Source: Amphibalanus amphitrite
Taxonomy: Eukaryota > Arthropoda > Thecostraca > Balanomorpha > Balanidae
Direction: 5' to 3'
Assembly: GCF_019059575.1 (NCBI RefSeq)
Contig: NW_024881707.1
Location: forward strand, 62,001-126,000
DNA length: 64,000 nt
In this document: one piece after another, positions 10,411-59,397 of the stretch
Position numbering within the stretch: position 1 is the first letter of the stretch
How the letters are laid out: every line of letters starts with the position of its first letter
The notes under the pieces: model-generated
The model's database searches: none
What the model was told of the DNA's origin: nothing
Seen by the model: only the letters and a program-made list of their open reading frames with translations
Made by a program: the position numbers and the translations under genes

Positions 10411-11292
10411 CAGGGGGTTGTTTTCATCCACCCCTCAGGTTTTTCGGGAATATCTCCGAAACCGCTGAAGCTACGATGCTGAAATTTTCTGACTTTTCCT
10501 AAAACTAAATTGGGCACATTCCTCGAAAATTTTCAAGTTCATAACTTGACCAGGGGCGGCTCCAGAGCACTGGGAATTGGGGGGTCCTATTCGTGAAGCG
10601 AGTCATTTGGGCGAAGATCACGATGCTGATGTATTATAACTGTATGCACCAGTTTTACGAACAGTGAATGAAAGGTATCATGTGATAACATAAACAAAGT
10701 TATTGTGCATCCTCTTTTGACACGTTTTTGCTATAATAGGCGGATCCAGGCGTCCAAAAAGGGGGGTTATGTTTTACCTCCCAACATAGGTGCCCTGACA
10801 CCGCCTATGCATGACCAATACAATTGTAGTCGTTCTCTCATAAGAAAATTGTAACATAAGAAGACCATTACCACCCTTTTTAGAAACAGTACCAACAAAA
10901 ACCTTATTTACTATACTTTTTGTGTACCCCCAATCTCAATGATCTGTATCCGCCTATGATTTTTGAAAATGCATATTTTTAGGATCCATATGAATTCCTG
11001 GTTCATTCTCTATCGATCGGCAAAAGTTGCGTTAAGATTGGTTCAGAAACCTGGCCGTGATAAACAGTCTAAAATGTATCTGCAATTTGCCCGTTTTTAC
11101 CCCCCTCTACCCCCCTATTGACATTTTTTAATTTTTATTTTTTAGAAATGTAGATCACGTTGAGCGAAATCGAATGCCGTTTGAATTTTGAAAATCAGCC
11201 CTTTAGATCTCGAGATATCAGGGGGGGGGGTCGTAAACAGCCCCCCCCCTGCCACTATAATAGGGGTAGCCAGGAGCCTGCCACTAATAGGG
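10411..11292 (-). mobile_element. piggyBac-type TTAA element, copy D, left end lost
   Basis: Near-identical to copy E (58321-59220) from the GTTGTTTTCATCCACCCC block to the right terminus CCACTAATAGGG, which is followed by TTAA at 11293-11296. The expected left end (TTAA plus CCCTATTAGTGG) is absent and copy C abuts directly. The central part (about 10760-10940) differs from E, indicating an insertion or replacement there; it contains AGGGGCGGCTCCAG and AGGCGGATCCAGGCG motifs that look like hAT-type ends. Confidence 0.8.
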
Positions 11293-14200
11293 TTAATTTG
11301 GACTTCTGTGCATACCCGTGCGGATGGATTCGCTCCACTCTCGTTTACTGCTTTTCCAAGTCGGTACTGTTGCACTGGTACAAATAGGATGTTGATGTAT
11401 ACTAAGACTGTGAACTGTGAAGTGCCCTAAGATAGGTGGCTGAAATGAGGCCTCCGCTGCTCTTCCGACAGGGAAGCGGTTGTACAGACCCGACAGACGG
11501 TCAAGGAGGTATAGAAAGGGTGGATGAAGAAGAGTAACCGAGAAGAAAGAATACGCCGATTAGGAGAAATGAAACATTTGCTGCGTAAGGGAACGATAAA
11601 CGACCTGTATTGTGTAATAATGTGTATACTTTGCTAATTGGTGTCCATTTTAAACATAATTAGCGATGCCATTGTTCGTCACAAACCATTAAGATAAAAA
11701 GACATGCCATACAGGCTACTGCTTCCACTTCCCAACTGAAGAAGTGTCAAAGGATAAAAGACACTCATTGCATGGCCATGGTCCCTCATTTTGGCATGCT
11801 TTTATTCCGCCATGGATATTGTGTGATCCCATCAAGGGGATGTAGGGAGCTGCACGGCATAAATGCTGTTGCTAATGTCCGCAACAGATGTTGACTGAGT
11901 AAATGCTAGAAACAAAACAGAACAAATATAGCTGCCAAGTCCCGGTAAGACTGGCGAATGAGAAAAGAAGGAATAATGCGAGGACAATGCTTTGGGTCGT
12001 TAACAGAAACAGAGAATATGAGATGCAAAATATGGAAGAAATGTTGATAAAATAAAATTATAGCAGGAAACTCTTATTGGCATATCGGTTTCAAAATAAG
12101 CGAAAAACGTTTATTCGTAATCAATGAGGAGTGAGTAGCGCAAAAAAAGAGGGGAGCTGCTGAGCGTCACTGCACTAAGACGCATTACACTGCAGGATCT
12201 TGAACTTGGTCAAAAGTGATGGAGCTACTTGCATGATCCCAAACTAATCCAGTTCGAAGGACTATCATGACATTTTACAAGACACCGCACGAGTCGTCAG
12301 AAGGCATGAAACCACCAAATGAGTACGAAGTCAACAACACGCGACCATCCGCATGGTGGAAATTTTCATGCACGCAAATTATGTTGGCTGCATTATGATA
12401 CAGGCCACTACAATGGCCATGGGAATCCTGCGGCTGTTCTAGCACCTCAAACCGTCCCGCTGTATGTGCTAGAGCGCAGTTTGGGGCATGATCCATCCTC
12501 TTTCCTACGGCGGCCGCCGCCGCTGCTGTGCCGACCAAGGCCAACAAGGTTTGCAGAACGACCGCCGCGCAGGAAACCTTCGCAGGGGCCCGGCCCGCGG
12601 CGGTGCAGCCCCCCTCCCCTCCAAACTGGTGGTGCAGAGGGGAGGTGGGGTACACACTACACAAGATAGAGAGTGCGGGGCTTTGTATATCAACATCGTC
12701 CCTATCGCAAGAGTCGCGTTTGGAAGATATATGGGGCACGTGAGCACGGGCAAAGGCGTTTGTTCATAACTTCACTCTATAGGAACTTCACACCATATTA
12801 TATAAAGGTAAACGTAATCAATGTAAGCCGGGGTGCAGAGTTAGACGTAAGTACTAAGTAAGGTTCTAAAACAGACAACAACAAAAAGCCACACAGAAAC
12901 GACGAGCCTTGCCCTTGACTATTGCCAATGCTATTTCTATGCAACCACCACCACTGTCCACTATCCGTATTCCGTTGATCATAAAGCTCTCACAAGTCAC
13001 AACCAGTCTGCTAGTGTCTCGAGACTCAAACTTATCTCATCAAAAATATCGATACAAATATAACGTGCCGTTTCACGGGCGAAATAAACTCGTTCGCTGT
13101 TTCAAGCTATGCGGTACAGTATATCTTCAGGCGCCACCACTAGTGCCATCTAGGGGGAGGAACATCAAACAGCCGCAGCTAAAGCGATTCGGTACGATCC
13201 ATCCAGTGATTTGTAATATGTTACCTACATATAACATAATGTTCTCGTATTAGACGTCCATGTTCATTTCGATTTTTGCTATATCGCCCGAAAGTCCCAG
13301 TCCCAGTATTACCACCACGTTTACGTGATTACGAAAGACGTAGGTAGGTACTAGGTAGGTATAGTCAGACATGCGATACCTTGAGCAATATAAGGCGCGC
13401 TCCTGTTTATAGTCCATATCTCCCAGTAGCAGTGGCATAAATGACATGCAAATTTAATTGAAATATTTATCACGTACTCATTTTAAATATAAAAGTAATA
13501 TGTGAAACTATGCAGAGGTCGCCAACCTTTCATCCGCAAAACAAAACTGGGACAGCATTCTTCAGCCACGAAATATCGTCACTGGTTCTCACCGTAGAAA
13601 ACACAAATTCCGCATACATATAACTATTTAGTGGTTTAGCGCACAGTGGAATGAGACGACCGATGTCGCTAAACTGGACCAACCAGTTTCTTTTCTTCGA
13701 GCACGTGAATCGCCCGTCGGTGTGCTGCATGACTGAGACACTTAGCACGCCTGCCCGAACCGACAATCGGTATCTATCTTTACGTTCCGTAAAGAGCTAT
13801 AAGCGCAGTGACAACTTAAGAATTACATGCACCGCTAGCGGAACAAACAATTCCCTTAGCATAGCGCTTGTGACTCCTCACATACCTACTTATATGCATA
13901 GCGCACGCAATGTACACTACAGTGGTGTCACGCTATAATTACTAACCGAAAAGTGAAAACTAAATCGGCAGACGAACCACTTACTGAAACTGGGATGGTA
14001 TTAATATCTTAAATGTGGTCTGTGGCATTTGTTTAATACCAAATGTCATGGTGACCATCTGTTTCTCTGTTTAATCAATGTATATCGCGCATTGATTTCG
14101 CTCGGCGACAGACAGCTGAGTCGGGCAGCTCTCGGAAAGCAGTCGTATTTTTGCCGTGCCGGTTGTCCTCCTGCCCGGTGCAGCCGTTTGGTATAGCTGC

Positions 14201-18249: not shown

Positions 18250-18972
18250 TCAATGGTGTATACGATCAGATATGTAGAAAGTTATACCTACTGTGCTCGT
18301 CTGATGAGTGTGCGCGTGCGTTAGATCAATTAGAAATGCATTCTTAGTGACATTGATCATGAAAATTGATCATTTGATGATTTTTCATTTGGCTAATTTT
18401 GTTGAAAATAGCACAACTATCTAATAAAGGACATGCAACATAACATAAATCATGCATTACCACTCAAACTTTCAAGTTCTACGAAAAGTTGTCCCATAAA
18501 ACATGTGCCGAGCATTTCATATCTGGACCGATCAGCAGCGGGGGCAGATTGTCCCGAATACGAGCTCAGCGACCGGAGCGCTGCCATTAAACCTCCGCTT
18601 TATGCCCCTCTGCAGCAGGATAAAGCAAAGAACAAGGAAACAATGCGGACAATAGCCCAACAACTATGATAGGCTCGTCTGCATTTTCAGCAGCGGCCAC
18701 CGTAAGCGCGACACACAAACAGGAAAACGGAGCGTCACCGGAGCGTGGCTGGCGATCGGGTTCCGAGGAAGCGCAGGAGCCCGTCCATCATTGGGGCCTG
18801 AGCGTCTGGTAATACGGATAACGTGAACACGCGACCACATACCCCAGTGGCAGGCGGGAGGGGACTGTCGTTCAGCGTGCATTCGCTGTTACGAGATCAA
18901 ATCCCACTTCGTGACACATCAGGTGCTATTCGGTTTTTTATCTTTAACACGTCGACATTCCACTTGAGTTAA

Positions 18973-20148
18973 CCCGCGCCCCGCTGGGCTATTCAGCCAT
19001 ACGCGCCCTGCTGGGGGGGGGGCAGATTCTGCCCCCCCTGTCTAACTTCCGAACCGATGGTCGTAGAAAGACGGGGAAAACGGCAATCGAAAGCTCTCAA
19101 CAAGGCGGATCTAAAGAGCCCAAATTTTTTTGCTTAAGTAGGTCAGAGGTCAGGTCAAGGTCAGGTCAAAGGTACAACATGCAAGTTTCTACAGCATCGG
19201 CCTTGCACCGTAGTTGCCGAAGAATGGACTGAGACTGATTGCCCAAAACGTGTTCTTAGACTACCCAGACAATATTCGTTGCATACAATGTCATTCAAAG
19301 GTCAAGGTCAAGGTCAGGTCAGGTCAGGTCAGGTCACCAGAAACAAAATATAGAAAAGGGCATGTGCGACACATGTTTTATGGGTCATTTTACTCATATA
19401 ATTCAATAGGCACACTCAATTAGTGATATGGACCACCTCTGGATGAATTTCAGGTCGAGGTCAGGTCAAGGTCAGGTCAAGTGAGGTCAAATTTTGAAAT
19501 TGGTTGTTAAGGCCTAAAAAGGTGTCTATCTGATGCAGTTTTTCACGGCAAATCGAATGGTGCTATTTTTGTTTCCGTACGATGTCTAGAACTCCCAAAA
19601 AAATCATTTTTCAAAATTTTTGTGTGTCGTGACGTCATAAATTTTTGAATAACTCCCACATTTTTGAACCGATTCTTCTAAAAATTGGTATGTAGGTGCA
19701 CATAGACCACTTCTCTGACATATATTCCGGTTTTTTCGATACACTCAAAATTTTGGATTTTATAATTATTTTCCCAAAAAAATCAGTTTTTTGAAAAAAT
19801 TTGGGCCAAAATCCAAAATTTTCAAAAAAACGAGATAGCCATTTGATAGACAAAGTAAAATCACGTATAACCTTTTTTGTTACGTCTTGATTCCTTTAAA
19901 AATGAAGATATTAGCGGCGTTTGAAATTTTGCCGTTTTTGAGGCGAAAATGGCGAACATGACGTCATTAAAACGTTAATTTCTCAAAAATTTTCCAACGG
20001 ATTTCGCTCAAATTTTCAGGGAACGTGTCAAATTGATGTATGATAAGGTACTGAAAGCTTGACGTCGCTGGCGTAACGCGTTTAGAAGTTATTGGCGAAA
20101 AACGGGAGGGGGGGGCAGATTCTGCCCCCCCCCCCAGCGGGGCGCGGG
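18973..20148 (+). mobile_element. piggyBac-type TTAA element, copy A
   Basis: An 1176-bp element flanked by TTAA (18969-18972 and 20149-20152). The left TIR is CCCGCGCCCCGCTGGG and the right end is its inverse. The left end repeats the terminal motif after a 13-bp spacer. Just inside both ends is the same hairpin: a G-run, CAGATTCTG, a C-run. Three AGGTCA-rich blocks lie at 19137-19176, 19294-19335 and 19450-19488, several in the extended TCAAGGTCA form, plus two TGACGTCA sites (19630-19637, 19959-19966). There is no transposase. Copy B is the same family in reverse orientation. Confidence 0.85.
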
Positions 20149-20152
20149 TTAA

Positions 20153-26041: not shown

Positions 26042-27327
26042 AAAAATAAAATAATGCACTTAACATATAAAGTGCAGCTAGATAAAATATTGCACTAATC
26101 AGCAAGAACATATGTTTTGTAAAATCAGCCAAATTTATACCTTAATCAGTTGATCCCAAAATGGAAAGCTGATTCATATTCCTGATTTATCTTCATTTAG
26201 AAGATTTGTCTAAATACCACATGCATAATATAAGCTATATACACATCAATACTTACTGCATTGATTGGTCTTGCATATGAATTTTCTTCATCCAATGCAT
26301 TCATCCATGCATTTGAAGAGCGTTGTGATATTGCTTATCATTGTCAATCACAAGTAATATAGATAATACACAACACTCGACAAGCCAAAAATTAACCTTA
26401 TTTCAGTTCTTCAATATTCGATTACTTGCCATTCACCCAATCTTGCACCAGCCGCTCGTCACTGCACAAAGCGTGATCCAACGCCGGATCGAAACATGGC
26501 GATCGCTTCCGGTGGACGCCAGAACGTGGTACCGCGGGCGTGGTCTTGATGAAAGCCATTACACTGATCAAACCACAACCCCTTCTTCTTAAACCCGATG
26601 CTAGTTCGTGCAAAACCTTCAAAGGGTTTATCTTTCGCGCGCTTTGTGTGACGTAATATCACGTGACTAGGGAGAACGAAGAAGAACCGGTGTTGGTCGA
26701 GTTGAAGTCCCCTGGGGCCGCTAAGACTGCACGCGAAGAAGCAGCACGTGTCTTCGGACTATGTGAAACACTGTGTGTGTTCTTCATGAACCAGACGTTC
26801 TGCTTCGCCTCTAAGCCAGTTTACCCTAATACCCAAAAAACCTAAGTGTGGAATATTTTAAGATGCTTTTGCATTACGTTCTTTCAACTTGTTTTCAGTG
26901 ATACTAAATCTAAAAGGTCTCGTTATTATAGCCTCATGCGGCCTTATTTAGAAGGGAAGCTCCATGTCACTGTCTGCGTTTAACACTTAAACTGTTCGAA
27001 GCCGAGCTATTAGGCGCTGAATTGATAGGGACTACCTATTTGAAGATTCAACCCAAGATTTGAGCATAAAAGAGCAGCACATTGCTCGCTATAGTGTAGT
27101 CTGTTTGGCTTAAAACTGCTTGCATCGCCAAGACGCTCATATGATCATCCATGAATTTTCCGTCCGATTAGCAGCTGCATTGACATGCAAGCAGCGTAAG
27201 CTGTTTTGTTGATCACCAAAACCAGCCCAGACGCCCGGACAACTAATGTTCTTACACTCCTGCAACGGTCGAGAGTTATGAGCCATGCTACGGCTACGAA
27301 CGCTGCGCCCAGGGGATGTTGATCAAG
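26042..27327. other. intronic, nothing recognised
   Basis: No conserved ORF, repeat boundary or RNA gene could be supported between the coding fragment and the palindromic array. Confidence 0.5.
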
Positions 27328-29744
27328 ACAGCCCATATTCAGCCCAGATTCAGCCCGGATTCAGCCCAGATTCGGGACACCTCCGATCAAGCTGAAAATC
27401 GCACACAATGTAGGCCATGACATGTCCAATCCACAGTCCAAGTCATTCGGCGGCACTCCCAGCCGTTTGACCTACAGAGGTCAGCAAAGGTCACGTGGCC
27501 CAAATTTGCACAGCAGATTGTGGCCCACCCAGTAGAGCTAGAGCGCTAAAAATGGCACCAATCGGCTCGCCAGCATCTAATCTTACTTTCCCAACACTCA
27601 TTTGACCTCTCAAGGTCATGCGATGACCTAAGGTCATTTGTGGGCTATGTCGAAAATAAACTTGCACAGCAGTTTTCGAGTAAAGGGATTGACCGAATTC
27701 CAAATCAAAGCACATCATAGGGTAGCCCATAGGCCGTAGTAACTTTCCTTTAAAACCGCTTTTCGATATGTGACCCCGTTTGACCTCGGCAGGTCAAAAT
27801 GTGCAAATAAACGACACTCCATACGTCGCAGCCCGGATTCAGCCCAGATTCGGGACATCTCCGATCAAGCTGAAAATCGCACACAATGTAGGTGATGACA
27901 TGCCAAATCCACAGTCCGAGTCATTCGGTGGCACTCCCAGCCGTTCGACCTACAGAGGTCAGCAAAGGTCACGTGGCCGAAATTTGCACAGCAGATTGTG
28001 GCCCACCCAGTAGAGCTAGAGCGCTAAAAATGGCACCAATCGACTCGCCAGCATCTAATCTTACTTTTTCAACACACATTTGACCTCTCAAGGTCATGCG
28101 ATGACCTAAGGTCATTTGTGGGCTATGTCGAAAATACATTGCACAGCAGTTTTCGAGAAGAGGAATTGACCGAATTCCAAATCAAAGCACATCATCGGGT
28201 AGCTTATAGGCCGTAGTAACTTTCCCTAAAAACCGCTTTTCGATATGTGACCCCGTTTGACCTCGCCAGGTCAAAATGTGCAAATAAACGACACTCCATA
28301 CGTCGCAGCCCGGATTCAGCCCAGATTCGGGACATCTCCGATCAAGCTGAAAATCGCACACAATGTAGGTGCTGACATGCCCAATCCACAGTCCGAATCA
28401 TTCGGTGGCACTCCCAGCCGTTCGACCTACAGAGGTCAGCAAAGGTCACGTGGCCCAAATTTGCACAGCAGATTGTAGCCCACCCAGTAGAGCTAAAGCG
28501 CTAAAAATGGCACCAATCGACTCGCCAGCATCTAATCTTACTTTCCCAACACTCATTTGACCTCTCAAGGTCATGCGATGACCTAAGGTCATTTGTGGGC
28601 TATGTCGAAAATACACTTGCACAGCAGTTTTCGAGTAGAGGGATTGACCGAATTCCAAATCAAAGCACATCATAGGGTAGACCATAGGCCGTAGTAACTT
28701 TCCTTCAAAACTACTTCTCGATATGTGACCCTGTTTGACCTCGGCAGGTCAAAATGTGCAAATAAACGACACTCCATACGTCAAAGCCCGGATTCAGCCC
28801 AGATTCGGGACATCTCCGATCAAGCTAAAAAATCGCACACAATTTAGGTCCTGACATGCCCAATCCACAGTCCGAGTCATTCGGTGGCACTCCCAGCCGT
28901 TTGACCTACAGAGGTCAGCAAAAGTCACGAAGCCCAAATTTGCACAGCAGATTGTGGCCCACCCAGTAAAGCTAGAGCGCTAAAAATGGCACCAATCGAC
29001 TCGCCAGCACCTAATCTTACTTTCCCAACACTCATTTGACCTCTCAAGGTCTTGCGATGACCTAAGGTCATTTGTGGGCTATGTCGAAAATACATTGCAC
29101 AGCAGTTTTCGAGTAGAGGAATTGACCGAATTCCAAATCAAAGCACATCATCGGGTAGCTTATAGGCCGTAGTAACTTTCCCTAAAAGTCGCTTTTCGAT
29201 ATGTGACCCCGTTTGACCTCGGCAGGTCAAAATGTGCAAATAAACGACACTCAATACGCCGCAGCCCGGATTCAGCCCAGATTCGGGACATCTCCGATCA
29301 AGCTGAAAATCGCACACAATGTAGTAGCTGACATGCCCAATCCACAGTCCGAGTCATTCTGTGCCACTCCCGGCCGTTTGACCTACAGAGGTCAGCAAAG
29401 GTAACGTGGCCCAAATTTGCACAGCAGAGTGTGGCCCACCCAGTAGAGCTAGAGCGCTAAAAATGGCACCAATCGACTCGCCAGCATCTAATCTTACTTT
29501 CCCAACACTCATTTTACCTCTCAAGGTCATGCGATGACCTAAGGTCATTTGTGGGCTATGTCGAAAATACATTTGCACAGCAGTTTTTGAGTAGAGGGAT
29601 TGACCGAACTCCAAATAAAAGCACATCATCGGGTAGCCCATAGGCCGTAGTAACTTTCCTTAAAAACCGCTTCTCGATATGTGACCCCGTTTGACGTCGG
29701 CAGGTCAAAATGTGCAAATAAACGACACTCCATACGTCGCAGCA
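27328..29744 (+). repeat. left arm of palindromic 477-bp array (about 5 units)
   Basis: Head-to-tail units of 477-478 bp; the TGACCTCGGCAGGTCA landmark recurs near 27780, 28257, 28735, 29212 and 29690 (the last with one change). The outer end starts with 11-bp CAGCCCNNATT subrepeats. Each unit contains TGACCTcggcAGGTCA, GACCTacagAGGTCAgcaaAGGTCA and TGACCTctcaAGGTCA followed by TGACCTaAGGTCA. Short ORFs repeat because the units repeat and 477 is divisible by three; no long protein is encoded. The arm ends abruptly at 29744, where the units flip orientation. Confidence 0.95.
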
Positions 29745-32700
29745 TTTGCAGACCTCTTCAGGTCAAACGGCTGGGAGTGCCACCAAATGACTCGGACTGT
29801 GGATTGAGCATGTCATGGCCTACATTGTGTGCGAGTTTCAGCTTGATCGGAGGTGTCCCGAATCTGGGCTGAATCCGGGCTGCGACGTATGGAGTGTCGT
29901 TTATTTGCACATTTTGACCTGCCGAGGTCAAACGGGGTCACATATCGAAAAGCGGTTTTAGGGAAAGTTACTACGGCCTATAAGCTACCCGATGATGTGC
30001 TTTGATTTGGAATTCGGTCAATTCCTCTACTCGAAAACTGCTGTGCAATGTATTTTCGACATAGCCCACAAATGACCTTAGGTCATCGCATGACCTTGAG
30101 AGGTCAAATGAGTGATGGGAAAGTAAGATTAGATGCTGGCGAGTCGATTGGTGCCATTTTTAGCGCTCTAGCTCTACTGGGTGGGCCACAATCTGCTGTG
30201 CAAATTTGGGCCACGTGACCTTTGCTGACCTCTCTAGGTCGAACGGCTGGGAGTGCCACCGAATGACTCGGACTGTGAATTGCGCATGTCAGCACCTACA
30301 TTATGTGCGATTTTCAGCTTGATCAGAGATGTCCCGAATCTGGGCTGAATCCGGGCTGCGACGTATGGAGTGTCGTTTATTTGCACATTTTGACCTGCCG
30401 AGGTCAAGCGGGGTCACATATCGAAAAGCGGTTTTTAGGGAAAGTTACTACGGCCTATCTGCTACCCGATGATGTGCTTTGATTTGGAGTTCGGTCAATT
30501 CCTCTACTCGAAAACTGCTGTGCAAGTGTATTTTCGACATAGCCCACAAATGACCTTAGGTCATCGCATGGCCTTGAGAGGTCAAATGGGTGTCGGGAAA
30601 GTAAGATTAGATGCTGGCGAGTCGATTGGTGCCATTTTTAGCGCTCTAGCTCTACTGGGTGGGCCACAATCTGCGGTGCAAATTTGGGTTTCGTGACTTT
30701 TGCTGACCTCTCTAGGTCAAACGGCTGGGAGTGCCGCCGAATGACTTGGACTATGGATTGGGAATGTCATGGCCTACATTGTGTGCGAGTTTCAGCTTGA
30801 TCGGAGGTGTCCCGAATCTGGGCTGAATCCGGGCTGCGACGTATGGAGTGTCGTTTATTTGCACATTTTGACCTGCCGAGGTCAAACGGGGTCACATATC
30901 GAAAAGTGGTTTTTAGGGAAAGTTACTACGGCTTATGGGCTACCCGATGATGTGCTTTGATTTGGAGTTCGGTCAATTCCTCTACTCGAAAACTGCTGTG
31001 CAAGTGTATTTTCGACATAGCCCACAAATGACCTTAGGTCATCACATGACCTTGAGAGGTCAAATGAGTGATGGGAAAGTAAAATTAGATGCTGGCGAGT
31101 CGATTGGTGCCTTTTTTAGCGCTCTAGCTCTACTGGGTGGGCCACAATCTGCTGTGCAAATTTGGGCCACGTGACCTTTGCTGACCTCTGTAGATCAAAC
31201 GGCTGAGAGTGCCGCCGAATGACTTGGACTGTGGATTGGGCATGTCATGGCCTACATTGTGTGCGAGTTTCAGCTTGATCAGAGGTGTCCCGAATCTGGG
31301 CTGAATCCGGGCTGCGACGTATGGAGTATCGTTTATTTGCACATTTTGACCTGCCGAGGTCAAACGGGGTCACATATCGAAAAGCGGTTTTAGGGAAAGT
31401 TACTACGGCCTATGGGCTACCCGATGATGTGCTTTGATTTGGAGTTCGGTCAATTCCTCTACTCGAAAACTGCTGTGCAAGTGTATTTTCGACATAGCCC
31501 ACAAATGACCTTAGGTCATCGCATGACCTTGAGAGGTCAAATGAGTGTTGGGAAAGTAAGATTAGATGCTGGCGAGTCGATTGGTGCCATTTTTAGCGCT
31601 CTAGCTCTACTGGGTGGGCCACAATCTGCTGTGCAAATTTGGGCCACGTGACCTTTGCTGACCTCTGTAGGTCAAACGGGTGGGAGTGCCGCCAAATGAC
31701 TTGGACTGTGGATTGGGCATGTCATGGCCTACATTGTGTGCGAGTTTCAGCCTGATCAGAGGTGTCCCGAATCTGGGCTGAATCCGGGCTGCGACGTATG
31801 GAGTATCGTTTATTTGCACATTTTGACCTGCCGAGGTCAAACGGGGTCACATATCGAAAAGCGGTTTTTACGGAAAGTTACTACGGCCTATGGGCTACCC
31901 GATGATGTGCTTTGATTTGGAGTTCGGTCAATTCCTCTACTCGAAAACTGCTGTGCAAGTATATTTTCGACATAGCCCACAAATGACCTTAGGTCATCAC
32001 ATGACCTTGAGAGGTCAAATGGGTGTTGGGGAAGTAAGACTAGAGGCTGGCGAGTCGATTGGTGCCATTTATAGCGCTCTAGCTCTACTGGGTGGGCCAC
32101 AATCTGCTGTGCAAATTTGGGCCACGTGACCTTTGCTGACCTCTGTAGGTCAAACAACTGGGAGTGCCGCCGAATGACTTGGACTGTGGATTGAGCATGT
32201 CATGGCCTACATTATGTGCGAGTTTCAGTTTGATCGGAGGTGTCCTGAATCTGGGCTGAATCCGGGCTGCGACGTATGGAGTGTCGTTTATTTGCACATT
32301 TTGACCTGCCGAGGTCACACGGGGTCACATATCGAGAAGCGGTTTTGAAGAGAAGTTACTACGGCCTATGAGCTACCCTATGATGTGCTTTGATTTGGAA
32401 TTCGGTCAATCCCTCTACTCGAAAACTGCTGTGCAAGTTTATTTTCGACATAGCCCACAAATGACCTTAGGTCATCGCATGACCTTGAGAGGTCAAATGA
32501 GTGTTGGGAAAGTAAGATTAGATGCTGGCGAGTCAATTGGTGCCATTTCTAGCGCTCTAGCTCTACTGGGTGGGCTACAATCTTCTGTGCAAATTTGGGC
32601 CACGTGACCTTTGCTGACCTCTGTAGGTCAAACGGCTGGGAGTGCCACCAAATGACTCGGACTGTGGATTGGGCATGTCAGGACCTAAATTGTGTGCGAT

Positions 32701-33724
32701 TTTCAGCTTGATCGGAGATGTCCCGAATCTGGGCTGAATCCGGGCTGCGACGTATGGAGTGTCGTTTATTTGCACATTTTGACCTGCCGAGGTCAAACGG
32801 GGTCACATATCGAAAAGCGGTTTTAGGGAAAGTTACTACGGCTTATAAGCTACCCGATGATGTGCTTTGATTTGGAATTCGGTCAATTCCTCTTCTCGAA
32901 AACTGCTGTGCAATGTATTTTCGACATAGCCCACAAATGACCTTAGGTCATCGCATGACCTTGAGAGGTCAAATGAGTGATGGGAAAGTAAGATTAGATG
33001 CTGGCGAGTCGATTGGTGCCATTTTTAGCGCTCTAGCTCTACTGGGTGGGCCACAATCTGCTGTGCAAATTTGGGCCACGTGACCTTTGCTGACCTCTGT
33101 AGGTCGAACGGCTTGGAGTGCCACCGAATGACTCGGACTGTGGATTGGGCATGTCAGCACCTACATTGTATGCGATTTTCAGCTTGATCGGAGATGTCCC
33201 GAATCTGGGCTGAATCCGGGCTGCGACGTATGGAGTGTCGTTTATTTGCACATTTTGACCTGCCGAGGTCAAACGGGGTCACATATCGAGAAGCGGTTTT
33301 GAAGGAAAGTTACTACGGCTTATGGGCTACCCTATGATGTGCTTTGATTTGGAATTCGGTCAATCCCTCTACTCGAAAACTGCTGTGCAAGTGTATTTTC
33401 GACATAGACCACAAATGACCTTAGGTCATCGCATGACCTTGAGAGGTCAAATGAGTGTTGGGAAAGTAAGATTAGATGCTGGCGAGCCGATTGGTGCCAT
33501 TTTTAGCGCTCTAGCTCTACTGGGTGGGCCACAATCTGCTGTGCAAATTTGGGCCACGTGACCTTTGCTGACCTCTGTAGGTCAAACGGCTGGGAGTGCC
33601 GCCGAATGACTTGGACTGTGGATTGGACATGTCATGGCCTACATTGTGTGCGAGTTTCAGCTTGATCGGAGGTGTCCCGAATCTGGGCTGAATCCGGGCT
33701 GAATCTGGGCTGAATATGGGCTGT
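29745..33724 (-). repeat. right, inverted arm of the 477-bp array (about 8 units)
   Basis: The same 477-bp unit in opposite orientation, eight full landmarks from about 29911 to 33260. The outer end (33625-33724) mirrors the outer end of the left arm, including the private variant ggacatg/catgtcc at exactly 93 bp from each end and gagaagagg/cctcttctc at exactly 827 bp from each end. The inversion point has no spacer. The whole 27328-33724 block therefore resembles a foldback transposon with long tandem-built TIRs, or an inverted duplication of satellite DNA. A clear target-site duplication was not found. Confidence 0.93.

Positions 33725-33727
<3 letters not shown>

Positions 33728-33815
<88 letters not shown>
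33728..33815 (+). repeat. (GA)n microsatellite
   Basis: About 44 uninterrupted GA dinucleotides directly between the palindromic array and the 3' end of the LINE. Because the LINE lies on the minus strand, this is a (TC)n tail on its 3' end and may be the element's own terminal microsatellite, as many CR1/L2-group LINEs end in one. Confidence 0.9.
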
Positions 33816-33819
<4 letters not shown>

Positions 33820-33855
33820 TGTATTTGACAGACTCGAGGTCCAGTACCAGTCACA

Positions 33856-36688
33856 TCACATCAAAATTGTACCACTGTACAGGGCAGAGCACCACGCTCT
33901 CCGAATCGATGAATAACATGCCAGATCACTTTCATATAGGGAGGATACGATTCGGTTGTCCGTCTGGCTCAGGCGAGTCATGAATCCATATACGGCCTTT
34001 CGATACATCGCCATAAAGTTATCGATTCTTTCATTCACAAACATGTCGGACGCACTACAGAAACGATGATAACCAAAGAACATTCTAGCTGCATTGTTGA
34101 AACAAACAGCAAATTTCCTTGACACAGAAGAGCGATAAGAATGCCACAGATGCACACCATGTACATTAGAACAATACGTAGAGTATAAGTACCGTTTTAC
34201 ATTATATGAGCACATTGCAAATTTCCTGATCAGGGAGTTTGCCCGACAACAAAGAAGACGATACTGATATTGGATTTCCAGATCATCAGTTTTCTTGGGG
34301 CTGCTGGTGATGTGGAAGCCAAGATATTTGTACTGATCAACATAAGCTAGAACATTTCCACACAGCACAATATCAGGCAGGATCATATTTCGAAACAGTG
34401 GAGGCAGAATCGACATACACACTGATTTCTTGGTATTGAACACAATATCATGATTCCCTGCATAGTCAGCACAAATGACAAATGTCAACCATTTTTTGCA
34501 GACCCTGTGGCGTAGGGGATAGGAGCACCATGTCATCCGCATAATATAGGTGGTTTATACTCCCCAGATAGTGACATCCTACACCACTCAAGTCCAATTT
34601 TTCTGACAGCTGGTCGGTATAAGCATTAAACAGGTACGGAGAGAGTATCCCGCCTTGCCTTACGCCATTCGTCACAGAGAACTCCTCAGAGAGGGTTTTA
34701 CCCCAAAGCACATGATACCTCTGTGAGTCTCGCCACCGAACGAGGAGCCTTACAACGCTATTATCCATTCCCCTACTCAACAGCTTATCAAATAGAGTCC
34801 AATGGTTCACGCGATCAAACGCCTTTCTAGCGTCCAGAAAACAGACAAAGACTGCACTCCTATTGCGCAAATAGTGGTCCACAATTTCTTTTAACGCATA
34901 CACAGCCATATCGGTAGAGTGGCCCTCCTTAAATCCAAACTGATGATCGCTAGTGAGAAGACTTGCTTTACATCGAGTGAGTATGACCCGCTCCAGTATT
35001 TTAGAGCTCACCGTGGCCAAAGCTATTGGCCTATAGTTATCCTTATCAGTCAATTTGCCTGTCCGATCTTTCACAATAGGGCGAAGTATCACCTTCGACA
35101 AAGAAGGAGGCAAGACGCCATGTCTCACCATCATCGAGAAACATAACGATAGATGCGTAGCACATGGAACACCCGCAAACTTAAAATGTTCAGCAGATAG
35201 ACTGTCACAACCTGGAGAGCGACCTGACGACAGCTCATGGATCGATTCTAAAACCTTAGGAACCGAGAACATATCAGCACCTTCACCATCATTACGAAGC
35301 TGATTCAGAACACCTTCTTTACAGTCATCGCCATCAACACTATTCAGAATATCAGCAAAGTGATCCTTCCACATGTTCGCTATATTTTTCTCTCCACTGA
35401 CGCTTCCAATAGACTGGGCCAGTGGCGGATCAGCGTTAAGCTTACGAACTTCTTTCCAAAAAGTTGCTAAGTCGCGCGGGTTTTTAGCAAATTTATCAGC
35501 TAGTGATTTTGCTCGCAGCTCTTTCTCATTCTTAAGACAAAAACGAAGCGCATACTTGAATTGTGACCTAGCCATTCGCAACTGACTGTAGATGTAGCCC
35601 TGACGGGGCTTTCCAACCAGGGACCAAAGGGAGTAAACATCACCGAACAAGGTGTGTTTCTCCTCCACAAACTCGGTCCAACCTGGGATTGTTCGCTTAC
35701 GGCTACCATGCGCTCGTTTGGCCACAGTAGTAAGAGTAGCACTCTTAATAGCATCAATTATCGCTTCATAATAACTATTGATAGCCTCTCTGTGGGCTAC
35801 ACTACAGTCAGTGGCAGCACAGAATATAGCCTCAAAAGGTACGTCAATATTAGACAATTGCTCCCTCGCAGCCATAGCAAAGTTGTTCAGACCAAGTTCG
35901 TCAACAGAAGACCAATCAACTACCCACCTAGGATCAGATTCAGCAGCCTCGTGTGAATCCGGGATAGGATCGGTGGTCATGATTTCCAGATCACAGCACA
36001 CTGGGAAGTGGTCAGAACTCATAATCGACACATCAACCCTAACAGCACGAACGAGAGAGTAAAGACTCTTTGTACAGACTATGTGGTCAATCCAAGATTC
36101 TGTGCAACTGCCATCATTAGTATGAGTGATTGAACTCTGGGGCAATAACAACACATCAGCAATGCGTAAGTCTGCCTCATGACAGAATGATTCAAGTTCA
36201 ATTCCAAAGTCAGATTGCTTGATGATGTCAGCATTAAAGTCGCCTACAATGCAGACATTGGGTGAGTCAAAATCATCGATGATTCCTTTGAGCTTAGCTA
36301 GATAGTACACGTATTGATCAAAGTTTTGTCTCGAGTCATACGGAAGATAAACCCCAACGAGAAGCAGTTTGTGGCCACCTAAATTACATTCTAATCCCAT
36401 AATTCTGTCGTCATCAAAGGAGATAGGTCTTACCCGCGGAGCCAGCTTACTCCTCCACAGGACGGCAACACCTCCATACGGCCTACCCAGAATTACACGG
36501 TCACACGGGTCAATGGATGAAGTGGCAAAAGACATGAAATCATTGTGAACATTATTCAAAAGGGTAAGTTCTTGAGGAAATAACCAGTGTTCCTGCAGGA
36601 ATACAACATCCGAGATATCACACAACTTCTTGATTCCAACTGCATTACGTTTAGAAGATTTGCAGTTATATGAGCTGACTCGTAACAT
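33856..36688 (-). pseudogene. LINE ORF2: endonuclease-reverse transcriptase, frameshifted
   Basis: Endonuclease domain at about residues 1-235 with its catalytic motifs intact: SYNCKS, LQEHWLF, GDFNAD, SWIDHIVC and SSDHFPV. The reverse transcriptase occupies about residues 500-740, with motif A FLDARKAFD near 615, motif B NGVRQGGILSPYLF and the catalytic YADD near 715. Shortly after YADD the frame runs into TGA at 34466-34468. The cause is a 7-bp tandem duplication (acaaatg at 34471-34477 and 34478-34484); the second frame continues to 33856 as a Cys/Tyr/Arg-rich thumb and C-terminal region of over 190 residues. Only this one break is visible, so the copy died recently. Confidence 0.9.
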
Positions 36689-36738
36689 GGTGACACGTTT
36701 GATTTAAGTAAACAACAACCAGAGTCAGGATCACTACC

Positions 36739-37110
36739 TTAGTAGTGCGCACCCGACCCAGCCGGGCGAATGTTCTCAGGTGGTGCTGATGTACTACTGT
36801 CCGATGATTGACGACTCGAGAAGAACCGGCGGATCACAAGACCCAGCGCCCAGAGGTCTGGATCCAGGACGTCATCACAGGATGGGTTCAAAATGTCAAG
36901 CCTATATGATTCATAGGTATCGTACCTTGTTTTCAGTCGAAGCACCTTCACATCATCAGCACCAGTCTGCTCCATGGCGTACTTCCTCACGGCCTCCTCT
37001 CCAGTACCAGGTGGAAGCCGCGAGATGAAGACCGGGACGCGTTTCACAGCTGCTACAGCTTTGATGGAGTCTGAAGTCCTGGAGCCAATGACAGCCTTCT
37101 TGACGGACAT
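36739..37110 (-). CDS. LINE ORF1, small RRM-like protein
   Basis: A 123-residue ORF 50 bp upstream of ORF2. The middle (about residues 25-95) has the look of an RNA-recognition-motif fold: VPVFISRLPPGTGEEAVRKY resembles an RNP2 strand followed by helix 1, and the stretch with DDVKVLRL then YRLDI resembles later strands. The C-terminal part is Ser-rich. ORF1 proteins of CR1/Jockey-group LINEs are RNA chaperones that bind the element RNA. This one is shorter than most, so it is either a compact ORF1 or the 3' part of a 5'-truncated one. No in-frame damage is visible. Confidence 0.65.
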   Translation of the reverse strand: MSVKKAVIGSRTSDSIKAVAAVKRVPVFISRLPPGTGEEAVRKYAMEQTGADDVKVLRLKTRYDTYESYRLDILNPSCDDVLDPDLWALGLVIRRFFSSRQSSDSSTSAPPENIRPAGSGAHY

Positions 37111-38843
37111 CGCCCAGGGGCCAGGCTAGCCGACTACGGGGAGTGTTCGCAATAAGGAGTCAGACCAGACAGACGGCAGGCAGACGAAGAGGGTTAGCTC
37201 AGCACATCGACGGGCTGAAACTTGCTTGGACCGAGTCAAACACACGATCTGTAGCCTGCACCATGGAGATCGAAGTGCCTACAATACGAAATAATGCAGA
37301 ACTGATGAGCTAACGGAATTGTTACAAGACAGATCTATATTATGATATTAAAAACTGCGTTTATGTGAAAGTGGTCACCAAAGTTGACACACCACCACTC
37401 GGACCGAAGTGTCACGAGAATTAAAAATAGATAAAGTAAGACACCACCGAGTTACACTGTTGTCCCTAGCAACGGGTGCCGGTTGACCGATCGACAAGGC
37501 TCGTCTTTATTTCACAGAGGGCGGCATTCCGAGGCGGTCTGCAGCTGTCACAGCAGACAAGTCTGGCGCCTGGCAGTCGATGCCGCCTGTCGGAGAGGCC
37601 GGAGGCGACAGGAAACCCCACAGTGTGGCAGGCACGGACCAGCTCCGCGCCACACTGACCGTGCAGAGACGTAGATCGGCCTGGCGACTAACTGGCGGCT
37701 AACGCGAGCCCCTGTGGGCCCCCACGGCACCGGGACACACACGATAGATGCTACTGCTGAGTGGGCGCAATGAGAAGAGGTCTACTGACGACGTCTGGTA
37801 AAGCATATTTAGAGCAGTAGCTGGCTAATGGGGGACCAGCAGCGTGTCGATTTTGTGCTATCCTTAGTTTCACTCGAACGCGCCGAAAACTTCATCGGGT
37901 AGCCAATTAAGTGGTCCACCAAACGGGATAGCGAAACGTGGCGATATTGATTATTTTTAATGGGACACAGACCGCGCCCTCAGCTCGTCACTATTGACCC
38001 ACCAGGATCTGCCCGGCCCCGGCACTCCCCCACGCCACCTTATCGACTCCCCGGGATCGGCGCGGGCTGACCCGGGATCGGCACCGTCTGACCCGACGCT
38101 GACCCGCGGAGTTGTTGTGTAAGCCAGGTCTGGCCCAGGAGACTGGTCCAGACGTGCCTGGTATTTCCGCGCCAGCCATGACACACAGCCTCATTCACAG
38201 ACGCAGCAACTGGCCGTTAGTCCGGCCGCGGCGAGGGCGGCCGCACACATCGGCGTCCTCTCCTCGTGGGGCGCCGCCCACACTGTCGTGTAGCCTCCTC
38301 AGCGGGCGTGCAAAGTAGCCTCTACATGGGGCGACTCCCACGTAAAACGTCAAAGACTGATGTCTACATGAAAGTCAGACAAGGGATCGCGTTCAGCGCC
38401 AACGCAAGAACGATCGAAGATCGAGAAACGCCCTAAAACTGCTGCTCGTAGGGAAAACAGTGCCTTATTTGGCGCACGAGTTGATCGGGCTGTGACGTAA
38501 CAGTGCGTGGGACAATAGTAGCCAATAGGTGTAAAAGGCAGAGGCGCACGGCTGCACCAACAGAAGCCTTCGGTTATCTCTGAACTTGTTTATAAGAACA
38601 ATGCTGGACACAACAAAACAGCAATGTGCAGTATGAATGCGACTTAAATAGAACATGTCCGAATTCGCACAACTACTTTCTGAGGGAGTGGCTCGACCGG
38701 AAATGTACCTCCTGTGACTAAAATATTGATAGGTTGACTCAGCCTGCCTTACCTTCGCCCATGTTCTAAACCAGTGAGAAGCACAAAACTGGACCGAAAG
38801 AGCTTACGTGCCAGCACATGAGGCGGCATACACTACTTTCAGG
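37111..38843. other. intronic, nothing recognised
   Basis: May include the LINE 5' UTR immediately right of 37110. GC-rich at 37470-38320, where ORFs appear on both strands without protein character. No gene or repeat boundary supported. Confidence 0.45.
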
Positions 38844-51862: not shown

Positions 51863-53826
51863 GAGGCCTGTTTCACTAACAAATAATGTTTGTAATTACA
51901 AAGAAAAAACTTGAGTTTAAAAGAAATAATTACCAACATTTGAAATTTGGATTTCACGAAACCTCCGAACATTAATTTTGAGTTTACAATTTCCCAACTT
52001 TTTTACAAGAAAAAAGTTTGTAAGAAACATCGGAATCGCAAACTTTCTGTTTCACGAAGACCAAAAACTTGAAAGAAAACGTTGTACTTACAAACCCGAA
52101 ATTCCAGTGGCCCTGACGTTTGAAATTTTGTTACTTTTTGTGCAATAATGCACAGCAATCAATTATTTGAAACAAATATGATATGCTGAGTCATTATATG
52201 CTCTTTTTTACTTAACCCGCGCGGGGCTGGGGGGGGTAAATTTTACCCCCCCCCCTCGCGAATTTTTGCAATATCTCAAAAACGGCGGCGCGCAGCGCCG
52301 CCAAACTTTCAGTACCTTTTCTTACATCAATTTGACACGTTCCCTGAAAATTTGAGCGAGATCCGTCGGAAAATTTTTGAGAAATTGACGTTTTAGTGAC
52401 GTCATGTTCGCCATTTTCGCCTCAAAAACGGCAAAAGTTCAAACGCCGCTAACATCTTCATTTTTAAAGGAATCAAGACGTAACAAAAAAGGATATACGT
52501 AATTCTACTTTGTCTATCAAATGATTATCTCGGTTTTTTGAAAATTTTTGGATTTTGGCCCAAATTTTTCCATAAAACTGACTTTTTTGGGAAAATAGCT
52601 ATAAAATCCAAAATTTTAAGTGTATCGAAAAAACCGGAATATATGTCAGAGAAGTGGTCTATGTGTACCAACATACCAAGTTTTAGAAGAATCGGTTCAA
52701 AAATGTGGGAGTTATTCAAAATTGTATGACGTCACGACACACACAAATTTTGAAAAAATGACTTTTTTGGAAGTTCTAGACCTCGTACGGAAACAAAAAT
52801 AGCACCATTCGACTCGCCGTGAAAAACTGCATCAGATAGACACCTTTTTAGGCCTTAGCAACCAACTTCAAAATTTGACCTCACTTGACCTGACCTTGAC
52901 CTGACCTCGACCTGAAATTCATCCAGAGGTGGTCCATATCACTTATTGAGTGTGCCTATTGAATTCTATGAGTAAAATGACCCATAAAACATGTGTCGCA
53001 CATGCCCTTTTCCATATTTTGTTTTTGGTGACCTGACCTGACCTGACCTGACTTTGACCTTGACCTCTGAATGATATTGTATGCAACGAATATTGTCTTG
53101 GTAGCCTAAGAACACGTTTTGGGCGATCAGTCTCAGTCCATGACTCCATTCTTCGGCAACTACGGTGCAAGGCCGATACTGTAGGAACTTGCAATTTGTA
53201 CCCTTGACCTGACCTTGACCTTGACCTCAAACTTAAAATTAAGTACATGTTTTTAGTTGTTCGCGATGAGATCTTTCGATTGGCGTTTGAATTTTCCAAA
53301 TCGGACCATTAGTTCGGGAGATAACAGGGGGGGGGGTAAAATTTACCCCCCCCCAGCCCCGCGCGTTCGGCTGGAGACCCCAGCCCCGCGCGGGTTAACA
53401 CAATTCCTATGAACCAGCTACGAGCAATATTTAAGTATCGTCATGTTTTGTCATTCGCGCGCCATAGTTGCATTCAACAGTCTTCTGCTGTCAAATGTTT
53501 TGCGTGTTATTTTCTTTCAATAAAAGGATATTGTGAGCTATCATTTATATCATTTTGCAACAGCATAATTATTTTTAATTTAATTATGCAATTTTTGATA
53601 TGAATAATAGACAAAATTTGATACAAAGAAACAAGATATGTAACATTTTATAGTTCTTGATTAAAAACAATTTTACTGTTTACAAGTTTATTTGCAAACT
53701 CTTTTTATCGGAGGTGCCGCTGCTGTTGAAGTTTAGTGAAATCCGAATTTACATAGTTTGCAAAAATACTTATGAATTGTAAAGTTCAAAAACTTGCAAT
53801 TGCAAGTTTTTAGTGAAACAGGCCTC
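51863..53826. mobile_element. middle element of the nest, Harbinger-like ends
   Basis: Inverted termini GAGGCCTGTTTCACTAA and GGCCTGTTTCACTAA, with a possible 3-bp TCA target duplication (51860-51862, 53825-53827). GGCCTGTTTCA-type termini and 3-bp duplications are typical of PIF/Harbinger MITEs. Exact ends are uncertain by one to three bases. It is interrupted by the TTAA element. Confidence 0.65.
52216..53394 (-). mobile_element. piggyBac-type TTAA element, copy B
   Basis: An 1179-bp element, reverse orientation relative to copy A, flanked by TTAA (52212-52215 and 53395-53398). TIR CCCGCGCGGGGCTGGGG. Both ends carry the same hairpin, a G-run, TAAATTTTA, a C-run (52229-52256 and 53328-53354). 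The right end repeats the terminal motif after a short spacer. TGACCT runs lie at 52878-52915, 53030-53065 and 53200-53230, and CREs at 52397-52404 and 52727-52734. No ORF. Confidence 0.87.
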
Positions 53827-56867: not shown

Positions 56868-57107
56868 GATTATCAGGAGTATGAAAAATAACCTCTTGCT
56901 CATATCTGAAGGAATTAAAAAATTAAAGACCAATATATATTCGGGCGTGGCCCTTCCTCAGTGATACAGTGTTACAATGGAACAACAACAACTTCCATTG
57001 TAACACTGTATCACTGAGGAAGGGCCACGCCCGAATATATATTGGTCTTTAATTTTTTAATTCCTTCAGATATGAGCAAGAGGTTATTTTTCATACTCCT
57101 GATAATC
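56868..57107. repeat. perfect palindrome, 115-bp arms, 10-bp loop
   Basis: Arms 56868-56982 and 56993-57107 are exact reverse complements with no mismatch seen, around the loop CAACAACAAC. The arm carries a CTGAGGA...GGGCcacGCCCGAA motif and an AT-rich tract. The identity implies a very recent inverted duplication or strong gene conversion. The arm may derive from the end of a retroelement. Confidence 0.93.
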
Positions 57108-58320: not shown

Positions 58321-59220
58321 CCCTATTAGTGGCAGGGGGGGGGGGGTTGTTTTCATCCACCCCTCAGGTTTTTCGGGAATATCTCCGAAACCGCTGAAGC
58401 TACGATGCTGAAATTTTCTGACTTTTCCTAAAACTAAATTGGGCACATTCCCTCAAAAATTTAAAGTTCATAACTTTACCAGGGGCGGCTCCAGAGCACT
58501 GGGAATTGGGGGGTCCTATTCGTGAAGCGAGTCATTTGGGCGAAGATCACGATGCTGATGTATTATAACTGTATGCACCAGTTTTACGAACAGTGAATGA
58601 AAGGTATCATGTGATAACATATACAAAGTTATTGTGCATCCTCTTTTGACACGTTTTTGCTATAATAGGCGGATCCAGGCGTCCAAAAGGGGGGGGGGGG
58701 TTCATACTGAAATGTACAGTACCATTTGATGAGCGGTTTCGTAGTAGTTACATTGCCAGAAAGCGATCAAATGCACCATACCATGTATTTGTGAACACTT
58801 ACAAGCGATGTTTTCCCCTAAAATCATAGGCGCGTCCAGGTGCTGAATATTGGGGAATAATTAGTAATTACATCTGTATCCGCCTATGATTTTTGAAAAT
58901 GCATATTTTTAGGATCCATGTGAATTCCTGGTTCATTCTCTATCGATCGGCAAAAGTTGCGTTAAGATTGGTTCAGAAACCTGGCCGTGATAAACAGTCT
59001 AAAATGTATCTGCAATTTGCCCGTTTTTACCCCCCTCTACCCCCCTATTGACATTTTTTAATTTTTATTTTTTTAGAAATGTAGATCACGTTGAGCGAAA
59101 TCGAATGCCGTTTGAATTTTGAAAACCGGCCCGTTAGATCTCGAGATACCAGGGGAGGGGGGGTCGTAAACAGCCCCCCTGCCACTAATAGGGGTAGCCA
59201 GGAGCCTGCCACTAATAGGG
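58321..59220 (-). mobile_element. piggyBac-type TTAA element, copy E
   Basis: A complete 900-bp element flanked by TTAA (58317-58320 and 59221-59224). TIR CCCTATTAGTGGCAGG; the right end carries the terminal motif twice (CCTGCCACTAATAGGG) around a TAGCCAGGAG spacer. It is near-identical to copy D outside the centre. G-run/C-run hairpins lie inside both ends. No transposase. Confidence 0.88.
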
Positions 59221-59397
59221 TTAAGACAACTTTAATGAAAGATGCATTTAAGAGTCAATCGAAGGGCGATTTATGCAGCTCCGAGTAATCATACAAAAAC
59301 GCCAAAGCGCACCTAAATCACAGGCCAGTGTAGGAGGACTGGCCGATGCGAACTATCACGCATGTTTACGGATTGGGCTCGGCAGCTGGCGGGCGGA

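What the first reader, a model, noticed from the sequence alone, without database searches (positions are those of the whole stretch)
27328..33724. Palindromic 477-bp array with position-locked mirror ends (foldback-like)
About five units run one way, flip with no spacer at 29744/29745, and about eight run back. Private variants sit at identical distances from each outer end (catgtcc/ggacatg at 93 bp, gagaagagg/cctcttctc at 827 bp), and the outermost 11-bp subrepeats match. Ordinary satellites do not keep mirrored unit order, so the ends probably originated as one inverted duplication. Foldback transposons with tandem-built TIRs are the closest known type.
Basis: partly seen in the sequence, partly recalled or inferred. 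Interest (0 to 1): 0.75.

Follow-up and report, generated by a model that had tools for sequence, protein, structure and literature searches.

The report
Tandem-armed foldback transposon, split by LINE
A jumping DNA element made of two head-to-head runs of a 478-letter repeat sits in an intron of an animal muscleblind gene, belongs to a large family in that genome, and bears signs that its two ends have been copied from one another.

Summary
In detail: five 478-bp units run rightward, flip at 29744/29745, and about 8.3 run back; outer units mirror each other (L1-R1 98.5%, L2-R2 97.7%). It is a foldback transposon, probably mobilised by a Mutator-like (MULE) transposase. The true ends are 27316 (ATGTTGATCAAG) and 37110 (CTTGACGGACAT), flanked by CGCCCAGGGG. 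A LINE (33725-37098) inserted 12 bp inside the right end and hid it. The motif at the arm's outer end has 439 matches genome-wide. Sixteen copies read across the centre all flip, each at a different place. Of 17 loci with both ends, 14 have 9-10 bp target duplications; mismatched pairs, 0 of 272. No unit order is shared between copies. Mirroring is significant in 3 of 11 elements tested and there covers only the outer ~1.45-1.67 kb. C145 has a whole end-A arm joined 29 bp inside an end B. Mirroring therefore looks like repeated end-anchored copying between arms, not one ancestral inverted duplication. No transposase was tied to the family. Closest known: Tm1 and Tetris.

The parts
27306..27315 (.). 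left copy of the 10-bp target-site duplication CGCCCAGGGG
27316..27327 (+). terminal 12-mer, end type A (ATGTTGATCAAG)
   Evidence: same 12-mer at many sibling ends
27328..29744 (+). left arm: 11-bp subrepeats then five 478-bp units
29744..29745 (.). flip between the arms, no spacer (unit position 478 joined to 133)
29745..33724 (-). right arm: about 8.3 inverted units, ending in 11-bp subrepeats
33725..37098 (-). LINE inserted inside the right end: (GA)n tail 33728-33815, endonuclease-RT ORF 34466-36703, upstream ORF from 36739 without a Pfam match. Secondary insertion, not part of the transposon
   Evidence: near-identical copies of its 5' part on four other contigs
37099..37110 (-). terminal 12-mer, end type B (ATGTCCGTCAAG on the minus strand)
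   Evidence: same 12-mer at sibling ends
37111..37120 (.). right copy of the target-site duplication CGCCCAGGGG

Best explanation
It is a non-autonomous cut-and-paste DNA transposon of the foldback type. Shown: two defined 12-bp ends (in 13 of 17 copies one A and one B), 9-10 bp target duplications, arms built of a 478-bp unit, and no core in the copies read. Inferred: a Mutator-like transposase supplied from elsewhere recognises the ends (perhaps also repeated internal sites in each unit) and moves it. Inferred: breaks in the unstable palindrome are repaired by copying the outer part of one arm from the other and re-joining the middle by end joining. This gives mirrored outer units, unequal arms, a different flip point in each copy and almost no spacer. 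Here the element inserted in an intron of a muscleblind gene, and a LINE later landed 12 bp inside its right end.
For: 439 matches to ACAGCCCATATTCAGCCC with <=1 mismatch (217 forward, 222 reverse) against 1 for the reversed control. Of the 100 places listed, 34 pairs are convergent within 25 kb (1.2-16.2 kb, median 6.2 kb), none divergent, one adjacent pair has the same orientation, 32 places were left unpaired. TSD: of 17 loci with both ends, 12 exact and one with one mismatch by script, where I placed the window's right flank behind the LINE; C145 is exact when its outer end is used (by eye); C72, C5 and C36 fail with 3 mismatches; cross-pairs 0 of 272. A with B in 13 of 17, B with B in 4, A with A in 0, two near-B variants counted as B; random pairing p=0.021. 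Flips: 16 of 16 copies read across the centre, each at a different pair of unit positions, Rayleigh p=0.47; match pieces overlap or are separated by at most 8 bp in 14, by 26 in C42 and C100. Mirror tract: C145 1 mismatch in the outer ~1490 nt, then many; C72 2 in ~1670 nt, then 1-2%; window 37 in 1450 nt, then about 4-9%. C145's left end reads end B, 17 nt, then a complete end A. Inner non-array stretches share no core.
Against: No transposase was linked to these ends. PF10551 has 111 matches in the genome; none lies inside a copy whose place I know (compared by eye; seven contigs hold both, nearest 6 kb outside), but only 100 of 439 end places were listed. Mirror register is not significant in 8 of 11 elements. 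In several of those the units are nearly identical, so the test has little power; C10 and C36 are more diverged and show no mirror, but with only 2-3 units per arm. In C72 the first left unit equals R1, R4 and R9 alike, so its register is weak evidence. Outer-arm identity exceeds every cross-element comparison in 9 of 16 elements and not in 7, one of which (C13a) has an insert in the arm; such an excess shows likeness within an element, not register.
Confidence: 0.75

Rival explanations
1. Foldback transposon whose mirrored ends come from a single inverted duplication of one arm at the birth of this family.
For: All 16 copies read across the centre are head-to-head; mirrored outer units here, in C145 and in C72.
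Against: No order shared between copies; mirror tract stops near 1.5 kb while the arms go on; the two termini differ (A and B) in 13 of 17 elements; very different arm-to-arm divergence of the outer 1450 nt (0.07% in C145, 2.55% in the window).
Confidence: 0.08
2. A dispersed satellite or other tandem array with a chance inversion, not a transposon.
For: 478-bp tandem units with higher-order repeats, for example every fifth unit in C537.
Against: Defined 12-bp ends, 14 of 17 target duplications, no divergent pairs among the listed ends.
Confidence: 0.01
3. The palindrome is an assembly or hairpin-read artefact.
For: Palindromes are a known long-read artefact (recalled).
Against: Different flanks on the two sides joined by target duplications, different arm lengths and unit sequences on the two sides, 16 separate loci.
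Confidence: 0.02
4. The reverse-transcriptase region 33725-37098 is part of the element and helps to mobilise it.
For: It lies inside the target duplications, and its upstream reading frame is open to the terminal 12-mer, which reads MSVK.
Against: Of 52 ends examined, 51 have an end 12-mer directly at the arm, if variants are counted, and only the window's right end has an insert there. Among the 60 loci then held only L024 (C1072) has similar sequence, 70% and inside an arm. Near-identical LINE copies lie on four other contigs, whose surroundings I could not read. A (GA)n tail suits a LINE 3' end (recalled).
Confidence: 0.03

Closest known systems
Tm1, Mutator/Foldback family of root-knot nematodes (PMC3169594; passages read, part of the abstract among them)
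   Same: 9-bp target duplications; arms of tandem repeats in different numbers at the two ends; asymmetric short end motifs, generally one kind at each end, outside the inverted repeat; non-autonomous copies.
   Different: Units of 13-15 bp, not 478; Tm1 copies have sequence between the arms and one kind encodes a putative Phantom-type MULE transposase; no mirrored-unit analysis in the passages I read.
Tetris of Drosophila virilis (PMC4079207; abstract, results part 1 and discussion part 1 read)
   Same: Foldback arms built from long (~220-bp) tandem units; TSD 8-10 bp; no transposase found; its authors suggest Mutator from the TSD length.
   Different: Tetris has a flanking domain of up to 866 bp and a middle domain; only three structurally complete copies; here the copies read are arms only and there are hundreds of end motifs.
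Drosophila FB/NOF foldback elements (recalled; FB named in passages)
   Same: Long internally repetitive inverted arms; frequent rearrangement and template switching in FB4 arms (PMC8277862, passages).
   Different: Short units and, in some copies, a NOF core (recalled).
Galileo (PMC3573991; passages read)
   Same: Long, internally repetitive, length-variable arms; copies made only of arms; exchange of sequence among copies.
   Different: P superfamily transposase; P-type TSD is shorter (recalled).
Rehavkus (PMC6446971; passages read)
   Same: 9-bp TSD; contains minisatellite.
   Different: Minisatellite before the 3' TIR only, TIR 26-400 bp, PHD-finger transposase.

Membership tests
Foldback-type transposon | Long inverted arms made of tandem repeats, length variable between arms | tested here: met
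Foldback-type transposon | Dispersed copies with constant ends and target duplications | tested here: met
   439 motif matches; 14 of 17 target duplications
Mutator-like (MULE) superfamily | Target duplications of 8-11 bp | tested here: met
   9-10 bp in 14 of 17; range from PMC6446971
Mutator-like (MULE) superfamily | MULE-type DDE transposase acting on these ends | tested here: inconclusive
   111 PF10551 matches in the genome, none inside a known copy; only 100 of 439 end places listed; one nearby match read and no element end found in 3.6 kb
Rehavkus | PHD-finger transposase, short TIR plus minisatellite before the 3' TIR | tested here: inconclusive
   Anatomy differs, since both arms are minisatellite; no transposase found in the stretches read
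P superfamily (Galileo) | P-type transposase and 7-8 bp target duplications (recalled) | tested here: not met
   9-10 bp duplications; P transposase not searched for
Helitron/Helentron with tandem repeats | No target duplication (recalled) | tested here: not met

The most novel reading that the evidence does not exclude
Each time such an element moves or breaks, about 1.5 kb from one end is copied onto the other and the palindrome centre is resealed at a new place. The arms would then be rewritten as inverted copies while the distinguishing 12-bp A and B ends are kept. In parallel, the family may spread and maintain dense arrays of nuclear-receptor-like sites: nine AGGTCA half-sites per 477-bp consensus unit (shuffled mean 0.23), 106 in this array, with about half the divergence of the rest of the unit (shift test only 0.046).
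Probability: 0.3. Interest if true: 0.65.

Novelty: new member of a known kind. Interest (0 to 1): 0.45.

Why it matters
How foldback arms stay alike while carrying repeats that ought to drift apart is an open question as far as I know, and I saw no study of mirrored unit order in the listings and passages seen. This family offers hundreds of end motifs, readable unit order, one copy (C145) that looks caught just after arm replacement, and mirrored tracts of graded divergence, so arm-to-arm copying can be tested by sequence alone. It also shows how a later LINE insertion can hide the target duplication of a transposon.

Tried and rejected
Looked for a shared core or transposase inside copies: 15 non-array stretches from 13 loci (the window LINE among them) compared with one another. 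They share only a LINE relative (C1072 with the window), two pieces of one retroelement in C108 and two weaker similarities to C5, so they look like separate later insertions; some may lie outside truncated copies. The MULE match on C6, 6 kb outside a foldback end, was read over 3.6 kb and shows no element end. First units do not split clearly by end type: A-A 96.95%, B-B 96.38%, A-B of other elements 96.60%. The 12-bp frame MSVK at the LINE junction was considered as a sign that LINE and element belong together; left as rival. Host species not determined. (a script) failed and was rerun.

Not answered: a LINE 3'-end search, whole-genome counts of ends A and B, and of the LINE junction. The genome search answered only; its other calls came back 'busy'. 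The paper searches for foldback families listed none that I could recognise by title or abstract as this element; no sequence search of published repeats was possible.

Full report
Setting. The window is G000:C210:62001-126000 of an unnamed 807.55-Mb genome in 2644 contigs. Minus-strand exons near 43.3 kb and 9 kb match adjacent parts of muscleblind-like proteins (residues 3-59 and 57-88 of the same PDB chain 5u6h_A, E 1e-21 and 9.3e-9), so the finding lies in a roughly 34-kb intron of what looks like an animal muscleblind gene.

Observation. The two arrays, their 478-bp period, the flip at 29744/29745 and the mirrored variants are all present. Five whole units lie left of the flip and eight whole plus a partial unit right of it. 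The outer three pairs are similar in mirror order (98.5, 97.7, 95.8%), the fourth is not (92.4%). Mirror order beats permutation with p=0.015.

True ends. Fifteen sibling copies were read across their centres, seven of them to both ends, and 30 end loci were cut. Ends of the family begin ATGTTGATCAAG (A) or ATGTCCGTCAAG (B), 12 bp outside ACAGCCCATATT, with some variants. In the window end A is at 27316. End B is at 37099-37110, and CGCCCAGGGG stands directly outside both (27306-27315 and 37111-37120). Between the right arm and end B lies a minus-strand LINE: (GA)n tail at 33728-33815, RT E=1.8e-28 and endonuclease E=2.4e-13. Four other contigs carry 99-100% identical copies of its 5' part, three over all 249 tested bases and one over 185. 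TCAA occurs at both LINE junctions and may be its own short duplication (by eye, inference).

Transposition. Of 17 loci with both ends, 12 have exact 9-10 bp duplications and one has a single mismatch by script; C145 has an exact 9-bp one outside its outer end (by eye); C72, C5 and C36 do not (3 mismatches). Cross-paired flanks give 0 of 272 (there C145 and the window entered with their inner flanks). The arm-end motif has 439 matches with up to one mismatch, control 1. Of the 100 places listed there are 34 convergent pairs, 0 divergent, one adjacent same-orientation pair, 32 unpaired places. End pairing is A with B in 13 of 17, B with B in 4, A with A in 0; random pairing p=0.021 (near-B variants of C365 and C2b counted as B, C145 by its outer end).

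No core, and flips that differ. All 16 copies read across the centre (window included) have a head-to-head flip; C1072 has a tail-to-tail one as well. The pairs of unit positions joined differ in every copy and the positions are not clustered (Rayleigh p=0.47). The blast pieces at the flip overlap or are separated by at most 8 bp in 14 of 16, and by 26 in C42 and C100 (with longer pieces C145 has a 21-bp gap). Non-array stretches found in copies differ from copy to copy and share no core.

What the mirror means. Between copies, units at the same position are no more alike than units at other positions (96.36% of 2545 pairs, 96.43% of 10462, first six positions), so no inherited order is seen. 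Within copies, C145 has units 1-3 of both arms at 100, 99.8 and 100%, then 96.0%; along the arms there is one mismatch in about 1490 nt, then many. C72 has two in about 1670 nt, but its units are nearly uniform and L1 equals R1, R4 and R9 alike. The window has 37 in 1450 nt and about 4-9% beyond. The tract is anchored at the outer end, about three units long, and differs in divergence, hence probably in age. The C145 left end is end B, 17 nt of arm, then a whole end A and its arm: the mark expected if the A arm was copied onto a broken B arm. Against this, 8 of 11 elements show no significant register, and 7 of 16 elements do not exceed all cross-element comparisons of outer-arm identity. Nearly identical units reduce the power in several; C10 and C36 are more diverged and negative, with 2-3 units per arm.

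Mechanism. Best reading: a foldback transposon moved in trans by a MULE-type transposase, whose palindrome breaks and is repaired from the other arm. Target duplication length (8-11 bp in MULEs, PMC6446971, passages) and the likeness to Tm1 and Tetris support MULE, but the enzyme is not found: 111 PF10551 matches, none inside a known copy, with only 100 of 439 end places listed. Template switching in repetitive FB4 arms is proposed in PMC8277862 (passages). Published work on Galileo and Tetris suggests that internal repeats carry extra transposase sites (PMC3573991, PMC4079207); the same may hold here (inference).

Half-sites. The 477-bp consensus of 225 units holds nine AGGTCA/TGACCT half-sites (shuffled mean 0.23, maximum 3), eight of them in four inverted pairs 4 or 1 bp apart; the window array holds 106. 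Divergence in them is 0.0090 against 0.0193 elsewhere, but the shift test gives only 0.046. Whether they bind a transposase, a nuclear receptor or nothing is open.

Verdict. The structure is real, the foldback reading is right, the single inverted duplication is probably not how the mirror arose. It is a new family of a known kind, with one very clean case (C145) and two weaker ones for copying between arms.

Noticed in passing
window 56868-57107: A 240-bp stretch is 95.8% self-complementary (a near-perfect palindrome).
   Followed up: no
window 18964-20152 and 52212-53403: Inverted 1.2-kb repeat pair, 87% identical, containing AGGTC-rich short tandem runs.
   Followed up: no
window 10413-11296 and 58342-59224: Two direct copies, 96-98% identical in two blocks of about 355 bp.
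   Followed up: no
L059 (C108 copy): An 8.1-kb insert in a foldback arm has an RT domain (PF00078, E=1.6e-7) and a second ORF that looks like a tyrosine recombinase by eye but has no Pfam match at E<=0.001; a 1.2-kb part recurs in a second insert of the same element at 96%.
   Followed up: partly
L024 (C1072 copy): Insert within an array holds a LINE about 70% like the window's over 623 columns; the copy also has an extra tail-to-tail flip.
   Followed up: partly
L020/L021 (C537 copy): Left arm repeats nearly every five units, so arms also grow by blocks of several units.
   Followed up: no
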